Part shown: in pieces, positions 54,846 to 56,037 of the stretch
Numbering within the stretch: the first letter of the stretch is position 1
How the letters are laid out: each line of letters begins with the position of its first letter
Assembly (NCBI GenBank): GCA_017512725.1
Contig: JAFWEW010000002.1
Span: forward strand, 1-64,000
Direction of reading: 5' to 3'
From: Solobacterium sp.
Lineage (GTDB): Bacteria; Bacillota_I; Bacilli_A; Erysipelotrichales; Erysipelotrichaceae
Length of the DNA stretch: 64,000 nt
Program-made: the position numbers and the translations under genes
The notes under the pieces: model-generated
Databases searched by the model: none
What the model was told of the DNA's origin: nothing
What the model saw: the letters and a program-made list of their open reading frames with translations, nothing else

Positions 54846-55010
54846 CTATTCGATCGCTTCGAGTTCTTCTTCTGGTACTCCCAGTTTACGAAGATAAGCT
54901 TTATAAGCATCCGCTTTGCGGTTGGCATATGCAGTTTCGCGCATAGCATCTTCGGCTTTGCGGTTTGCCTCAATGATTTGGTTTCTCATCTGATCGATTG
55001 CTTCACACAT
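54846..55010 (-). CDS. Small Rpn C-terminal-like protein, free duplicate (RpnS-like)
   Basis: 54 residues from the ATG at 55010, with AGAGGTG 6 bases upstream: MCEAIDQMRNQIIEANRKAE... ending GVPEEELEAIE. It is a close paralogue of the intragenic small protein at 55054-55284, lacking one 14-residue repeat unit. It is highly helical and charged, built of ANRKAExAMRETAY-type heptad/11-residue repeats. By analogy with the E. coli Rpn systems, in which a C-terminal internal product inhibits the full-length nuclease, it could be an antitoxin-like protein. That role is inferred. Confidence 0.55.
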   Translation of the reverse strand: MCEAIDQMRNQIIEANRKAEDAMRETAYANRKADAYKAYLRKLGVPEEELEAIE

Positions 55011-55053
55011 AAATTCACCTCTTGACCGCTGTGGTTTGAGCGGGTAAAGATAC

Positions 55054-55284
55054 TCAGCTGACGAATTCTTTCCTGTCAGGTGTAGCTGCTTCGATTTCTT
55101 CTTCTGAAATACCCGCTTTACGAAGAAGTGCTTCATAAGCATCCGCTTTACGGTTGGCATATGCAGTTTCGCGCACAGCATTCTCCGCTCTTTGTTGGAC
55201 ATATGCAATTTCGCGCATGGCATTTTCGGCTTTGCGGTTGGCTTCAACAATCTGGTTTCTCATCTGATCAATTGCTTTACACAT
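55054..55284 (-). CDS. Intragenic Rpn C-terminal small protein (RpnS-like)
   Basis: 76 residues from the ATG at 55284 (MCKAIDQMRNQIVEANRKAE...), within and in frame with the rpn pseudogene. The codons for Gly-Gly-Val-Asn just before it form GGAGGCGTAAAT, a strong ribosome binding site with 7-base spacing. This frame is intact while the full-length gene is broken upstream, so the small protein can still be made. It contains two near-repeats of ANRKAENAMRE-type sequence. The gene-within-gene arrangement matches that reported for E. coli rpn genes, where the product blocks the nuclease. Confidence 0.55.
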   Translation of the reverse strand: MCKAIDQMRNQIVEANRKAENAMREIAYVQQRAENAVRETAYANRKADAYEALLRKAGISEEEIEAATPDRKEFVS

Positions 55285-56037
55285 ATTTACGCCTCCATCG
55301 TTATTTAAGAACTCCTTCAGCGGCAAACGGGAATGAGTAGCTTCATTCAGAAGTTCTGCCGTACTGTAAGTTAAGTTGCGAAAATGAAACTGATCGGAAT
55401 GCATCATACCGGTCAGACGATCAGAATCATTACACGTATTAATATACCCCATAATTTCCCGCAATTGTGTTTCTAAAGATGATATTTTTCTGAGACTTAA
55501 TTCTGATGGAATTTAACAATGTGAAGATGATAATTATCCAGGATATTTCTGTGCTTTCTGACATACAGTGGATCCAGCATGTCGAACAGGCATCTGGGAC
55601 CGTTCCAGGGTTTGGTTCCCCAGTAGAAAAACAGTGTATGTACTGGCTTTAAGGTTCCGTTGAATGGAAATCCGGAAAGGTATTCATCTCCGGTGAGTTT
55701 GTCTTTTTCTTCATAAGTTCTGATCTGGGAATTGTACGCAAGTCCATCATAAACAATTCCGCGTACAACCGCTGTTGTATCTACATAAGAAGAATCTTCG
55801 ATTCCGCATAATACCAGATATTCTTTTTCGCTCTTCCGTATCTCCGCAAAATTGAAATTGTCGCGTACCCGCTTGAGCGTTTTTCCCCGGTCAAACAAAA
55901 TATTGGTGAGATTTGCGGGTTTTAAGGGAGTTGCTGCGGATAACCTCTTCTCCATACAGAAACTGATTAAACAGTTCCGCGTAACAGTCCGGGTTTTCTT
56001 TCCAGAACAGATGTGTAAGATTATCCAGTTTGCCCAT
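55054..56037 (-). pseudogene. rpn: Rpn-family PD-(D/E)XK nuclease/transposase gene with two compensating frameshifts
   Basis: An ATG at 56037 with GGGAG upstream opens MGKLDNLTHLFWKENPDCYAEL...; the frame breaks at an AAAA run (55920-55923). The middle part continues in another frame (55955-55497: YLVLCGIEDSS, VVRGIVYDGLAY, FYWGTKPWNGPRCLFDMLDP), and the original frame returns after an AAA run (55512-55514), giving LSLRKISSLETQLREIMGYI to the stop at 55054. One extra A and one missing A restore a 328-codon gene. The middle segment matches Rpn/PDDEXK_2 proteins, but the usual ENQ near the active site reads EDS. It may be a decaying gene or one switched by slippage in A runs. Confidence 0.75.

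What the first reader, a model, noticed from the sequence alone, without database searches (positions are those of the whole stretch)
54846..56037. Rpn locus with an intact gene-within-gene product, a free duplicate of it, and a frameshifted full-length gene
The C-terminal 76 codons of the rpn gene have their own strong ribosome binding site (GGAGG, 7-base spacing) encoded by the Gly-Gly-Val-Asn codons. A second small gene with its own ribosome binding site repeats the same protein downstream. E. coli Rpn nucleases are inhibited by just such internal C-terminal products. Here the toxin-like full-length gene is broken while both small putative antitoxin copies stay open. An extra stand-alone copy would be a new arrangement.
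Basis: partly seen in the sequence, partly recalled or inferred. Interest (0 to 1): 0.75.

Follow-up and report, generated by a model that had tools for sequence, protein, structure and literature searches.

The report
Decayed Rpn nuclease with antitoxin copies
This is a broken copy of a known bacterial self-toxic nuclease (Rpn) that still carries its built-in antitoxin and a second free copy of that antitoxin just downstream, the same layout already described at rpnE-ypaA in E. coli, so it is a new example rather than a new arrangement.

Summary
On the minus strand a full-length Rpn (YhgA-like) gene starts at 56037 and is broken by two frameshifts. Its last 76 codons (55284-55054) form an open reading frame behind GGAGG with 7-base spacing. 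A separate 54-codon gene (55010-54846) repeats that product, with its own GAGG at 7 bases.

The small proteins are not identical: the free one lacks one 14-residue helix repeat and has a different tail. The internal start is a real family feature: in 15 related loci it carries a far stronger ribosome-binding site than other in-frame ATGs, and Met-Cys is invariant in the six aligned intact ones.

The claimed novelty fails. Zhong et al. 2023 describe free RpnS copies downstream of rpnE and rpnC. E. coli K-12 itself has an inactive rpnE followed by ypaA, with a duplicated ribosome-binding site and one repeat unit of difference. Three related loci found here also have downstream copies.

Selective retention of the antitoxins is not shown. 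Two lesions missing the small ORFs is about 0.4-0.6 likely by chance. A related genome keeps the 5' end nearly unchanged in protein, so the break looks recent. No other Rpn gene was found in this genome. Verdict: a new, decayed member of a known kind.

The parts
55891..56037 (-). 5' piece of the broken rpnL gene (first frame), ATG at 56037, ribosome-binding site GAGGGAG at 56053-56047
   Evidence: matches profile positions 1-47 of relatives, E 8.6e-5
55497..55955 (-). middle piece of rpnL (second frame): PD-(D/E)XK nuclease core; aspartate and glutamate positions kept, the E-N-Q motif reads E-D-S
   Evidence: profile 51-190, E 6.9e-26; alignment
55054..55464 (-). 3' piece of rpnL (third frame, open from about 55512): linker plus C-terminal domain
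   Evidence: profile 176-298, E 3.9e-8
55054..55284 (-). internal RpnS-like ORF, 76 codons, with two 14-residue helix units
55292..55296 (-). GGAGG ribosome-binding site of the internal start, 7-base spacing, inside Gly-Gly codons
   Evidence: duplex energy -9.3 kcal/mol
54846..55010 (-). free RpnS-like gene, 54 codons, one 14-residue unit
55016..55022 (-). AGAGGTG ribosome-binding site of the free copy (GAGG 7 bases from the ATG)
   Evidence: duplex energy -10.1 kcal/mol
55153..55236 (-). two consecutive 14-residue (42-nt) repeat units in the internal copy; the free copy has one
   Evidence: RKAENAMREIAYVQ / QRAENAVRETAYAN, 11 nt differences

Best explanation
A Rpn (YhgA-like, PF04754) toxin-antitoxin gene that has recently become a pseudogene in this strain. 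The full-length product RpnL would be a DNA endonuclease; the C-terminal helix domain RpnS, made from the internal ATG, would dimerise and bind the same domain in RpnL to block it. A local tandem duplication of the rpnS part, including its ribosome-binding site, gave a second free RpnS gene, which has since diverged by one 14-residue helix unit and a different tail. Two frameshifts now prevent a full-length nuclease, leaving two open antitoxin-like ORFs with no detected toxin partner in this genome. Shown here: homology, the three-frame break, the conserved internal start, the duplication, and absence of another detectable rpn in the assembly. Inferred from E. coli work: nuclease inhibition by RpnS. 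Not shown: expression of either small protein.
For: A profile of relatives matches the locus in three consecutive frames and nothing else in the genome. Relatives hit PF04754 Transposase_31, the E. coli Rpn family (Kingston 2017 PMC5350276). Internal Met-Cys is invariant among six aligned relatives; anti-SD energy at the internal ATG averages -10.4 versus -2.5 kcal/mol at 154 other in-frame ATGs in 15 loci, p 8e-10. The duplication includes the ribosome-binding site. Same layout at E. coli rpnE-ypaA and downstream free copies in L008, L028, L031. RpnS action: Zhong 2023. Recent decay: the orthologous 5' end in G202 is 26/27 identical in protein with 6 nt changes, P 0.009 against neutrality.
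Against: The window pieces themselves score below Pfam and NCBIfam cut-offs, so family assignment rests on relatives at about 33% identity. The predicted small protein is one long helix and its model did not find the solved RpnA_S structure. The frameshifts could in principle be assembly errors. No promoter-like site was found on the minus strand.
Confidence: 0.82

Rival explanations
1. The orphan RpnS copies are kept by selection after toxin loss, as an anti-toxin that protects the cell from incoming Rpn nucleases on plasmids or phages.
For: Both small ORFs are open with good ribosome-binding sites. The two copies differ mostly at silent sites: dN/dS 0.26, 11 residue changes versus 18.2 expected under neutrality, P 0.0005.
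Against: The same pattern is expected if the copies diverged while the toxin was still whole, or if about half of the changes were neutral and the rest silent. Two lesions missing the small ORFs has probability 0.43-0.59 by length. The linker upstream of the internal start is open too. RpnS specificity is narrow in E. coli (RpnA_S does not block RpnB).
Confidence: 0.08
2. The frameshifts are sequencing or assembly errors and the gene is a whole, working Rpn toxin-antitoxin locus with an extra RpnS copy, like L008.
For: Draft assembly of 45 contigs. Between this genome and G202 the first 27 codons are under purifying selection.
Against: Two separate frameshifts in one gene. Substitutions at conserved sites are independent of indels: E-N-Q reads E-D-S and the conserved M-P reads A-V. 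RpnA-Q84A was still toxic, so the Q change alone does not prove inactivity.
Confidence: 0.1
3. The small ORFs are not made; they are remnants of a decayed coding sequence and a partial duplication.
For: No promoter-like site on the minus strand; the full-length gene is a pseudogene.
Against: The internal ribosome-binding site is conserved family-wide, the free copy carries its own, and E. coli RpnS products are detected for all five rpn genes plus ypaA.
Confidence: 0.2

Closest known systems
E. coli K-12 rpnE-ypaA (RpnE with downstream free RpnE_S)
   Same: Full-length rpn inactive (annotated inactive; inactive in all assays) followed at once by a free copy of its C-terminal product, with the ribosome-binding site duplicated too and the free copy differing by one helix repeat.
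   Different: RpnE is a whole open frame; here the frame is broken twice. The repeat is 4 residues there, 14 here. The small proteins are not alike in sequence.
E. coli rpnC with downstream rpnC_S in some strains
   Same: Second RpnS gene downstream, of independent origin from its own rpn (Zhong 2023).
   Different: RpnC is an active nuclease.
RpnA (YhgA) RpnL/RpnS toxin-antitoxin system, PF04754
   Same: Nuclease core plus C-terminal domain with an internal translation start.
   Different: Here the nuclease cannot be made; the RpnS-like protein is predicted as one helix of about 54 residues plus short ones, where RpnA_S is a three-helix bundle.
L008 (same bacterial family, genome G136)
   Same: Free RpnS-like ORF starting about 20 nt after the end of rpnL.
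   Different: rpnL is intact there, and its free copy is longer in the helix than the internal one.

Membership tests
Rpn / YhgA-like nuclease (PF04754, COG5464) | Match to the family profile | tested here: inconclusive
   Window pieces give no match; collinear relatives match PF04754 above its cut-off and a profile of them matches the window
Rpn / YhgA-like nuclease (PF04754, COG5464) | PD-(D/E)XK core with D, E and Q active-site residues (RpnA D63, E82, Q84) | tested here: not met
   D and E positions kept, Q replaced by S, and the core lies in a frame cut off from the start codon; hence filed as a decayed relative, not a working member
RpnL/RpnS gene-within-gene toxin-antitoxin | Internal in-frame start with ribosome-binding site giving the C-terminal domain | tested here: met
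   (sequence level only)
RpnL/RpnS gene-within-gene toxin-antitoxin | Variable repeats in the first helix of RpnS | tested here: met
   Two versus one 14-residue unit in the two copies; a single long helix is predicted. The E. coli unit is 4 residues.
RpnL/RpnS gene-within-gene toxin-antitoxin | Full-length toxic nuclease made | tested here: not met
   Frame broken twice
RpnL/RpnS gene-within-gene toxin-antitoxin | RpnS binds and blocks RpnL | not testable with these tools
   Needs a bench assay
Stand-alone RpnS downstream of rpn (rpnE-ypaA type) | Separate ORF homologous to the adjacent rpn C-terminus, with its own ribosome-binding site | tested here: met
   precedent

The most novel reading that the evidence does not exclude
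The two orphan RpnS proteins, of different helix-repeat length, are kept after toxin loss as a small immunity set against incoming Rpn nucleases of different repeat type.
Probability: 0.06. Interest if true: 0.45.

Novelty: new member of a known kind. Interest (0 to 1): 0.15.

Why it matters
It extends the rpnE-ypaA type of arrangement to a distant bacterial group and shows that the internal ribosome-binding site of rpn genes is strongly conserved there. The toxin-lost state would let one ask whether orphan RpnS proteins persist, but this single genome does not answer it.

Tried and rejected
Direct Pfam and NCBIfam scans of the broken pieces gave nothing useful. PF12784 is not informative: the control genomes did not ring either. 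The plasmid DNA search, the scan of genome contigs and the scan of viral contigs found no close relative. Foldseek of the small-protein model gave no meaningful match, and the solved-structure sequence search with the relatives' profile gave none. A synonymous-recoding test of the ribosome-binding site in relatives was only weakly positive (combined p 0.04) and not significant for the window itself (0.61), because Glu and Gly codons readily make GGAGG; the comparison with other in-frame ATGs is the stronger evidence. One ortholog, in G202, ends at a contig edge inside rpn, so whether its gene is whole cannot be seen.

Full report
What is there. On the minus strand, a gene begins with ATG at 56037 behind GAGGGAG and runs to 55054, but not in one frame: open pieces are 56037-55891, 55955-55497 and 55464-55054, the last open from about 55512. 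A profile built from six relatives matches these pieces in order, positions 1-47, 51-190 and 176-298. So it is one gene cut by two frameshifts, one around 55.89-55.96 kb and one around 55.50-55.52 kb. A separate ORF, 55010-54846, of 54 codons, follows 43 bases after the stop. The two copies share DNA at 82-84% identity, including the stretch with the ribosome-binding site. They are not the same protein: 43 of 54 residues agree when one 14-residue unit is taken out of the internal copy, and the tails differ.

What family. The broken pieces do not reach any Pfam or NCBIfam model. Collinear relatives from the same bacterial family (about 33% identical) do reach PF04754, Transposase_31, YhgA-like, which is the family of E. 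coli RpnA to RpnE (Kingston 2017, PMC5350276). The aspartate and glutamate of the nuclease core are kept; the usual E-N-Q reads E-D-S. In RpnA the Q84A change was still toxic while Q84K was not, so this substitution alone does not settle activity; the frameshifts do. No other Rpn was found in the genome with the same profile; the PF04754 model itself finds nothing in it, not even this locus.

Is the internal start more than chance? Yes at family level. In 15 related loci, the anti-Shine-Dalgarno energy in front of the homologous internal ATG averages -10.4 kcal/mol against -2.5 for 154 other in-frame ATGs in the same genes (p 8e-10), while the encoded residues there vary. Met-Cys at that position is invariant in the six aligned relatives; a few others read Met-Leu. 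For the window alone the codon choice is not remarkable. In L036 a stop codon lies right in front of the ribosome-binding site, so rpnS is there a separate gene.

Is the free copy new? No. Zhong et al. 2023 (PMC10327210) showed that RpnS is made from an internal start and blocks RpnL, that a second RpnE_S is encoded by ypaA downstream of rpnE, that rpnC_S copies occur downstream of rpnC in some strains, and that a change of repeat number breaks the match between antitoxin and toxin. I read the E. coli K-12 DNA directly: rpnE, annotated as inactive, is followed 12 bases later by ypaA; both starts have AAAAGGAGAGATTA in front, and ypaA has one more helix repeat. That is the present arrangement except that RpnE is not frameshifted. 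Three of the related loci fetched here, L008, L028 and L031, also have free copies downstream.

Are the small copies kept while the toxin decays? The two copies differ mostly at silent sites (dN/dS 0.26; 11 residue changes against 18.2 expected, P 0.0005). This shows constraint at some time since the duplication, but it could all predate the break; a mix in which half the changes are neutral fits as well. With only two lesions, the chance that both miss the small ORFs is 0.43 to 0.59 by length. A related genome, G202, whose aldo/keto reductase neighbour is 93% identical, has the same gene start at a contig edge: 6 base changes in 27 codons, one residue change, P 0.009 under neutrality. The nuclease start was therefore under constraint for most of the time since the two species parted, so the break is probably young and has left little time for the small ORFs to decay.

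Mechanism. By analogy with E. coli, RpnS dimerises through its long first helix and binds RpnL through the same domain. The model of the 76-residue protein is one helix from residue 3 to 56 followed by short helices (mean pLDDT 88.6), in line with repeats that lengthen that helix. The internal and free copies differ by one unit, so by the RpnC result they may not be interchangeable. None of this was tested for these proteins. The neighbouring genes scanned (sortase, EamA transporter, GntR/FCD regulator, nitroreductase, aldo/keto reductase, acyltransferase, MATE transporter) do not look like a defence island.

Verdict. It is a decayed new member of a known kind.

Noticed in passing
L036:287-523 (G213, same genus): A TAA stop sits directly in front of the ribosome-binding site of the RpnS-like ORF, so rpnL ends and rpnS follows as a separate gene: a split form of the gene-within-gene.
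   Followed up: partly
L008:2077-2430 (G136): An intact rpn gene is followed after about 20 nt by a free RpnS-like ORF with a weaker ribosome-binding site; the two differ by an insert in the helix.
   Followed up: partly
G052 contig C1 (L010, L021, L025, L027, L028, L030-L034): At least 13 rpn copies in one 2.5 Mb genome, with C-terminal variants of two tail types and, in two loci, partial downstream copies of the other type.
   Followed up: no
L040:1639-1980: RpnS-like domain with several near-identical charged repeats (EAEKARNEAEIVQLKAEN), a good case for repeat-number variation.
   Followed up: no
G202:C16:1-158 (L066): The contig of a related genome ends inside the orthologous rpn gene.
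   Followed up: partly
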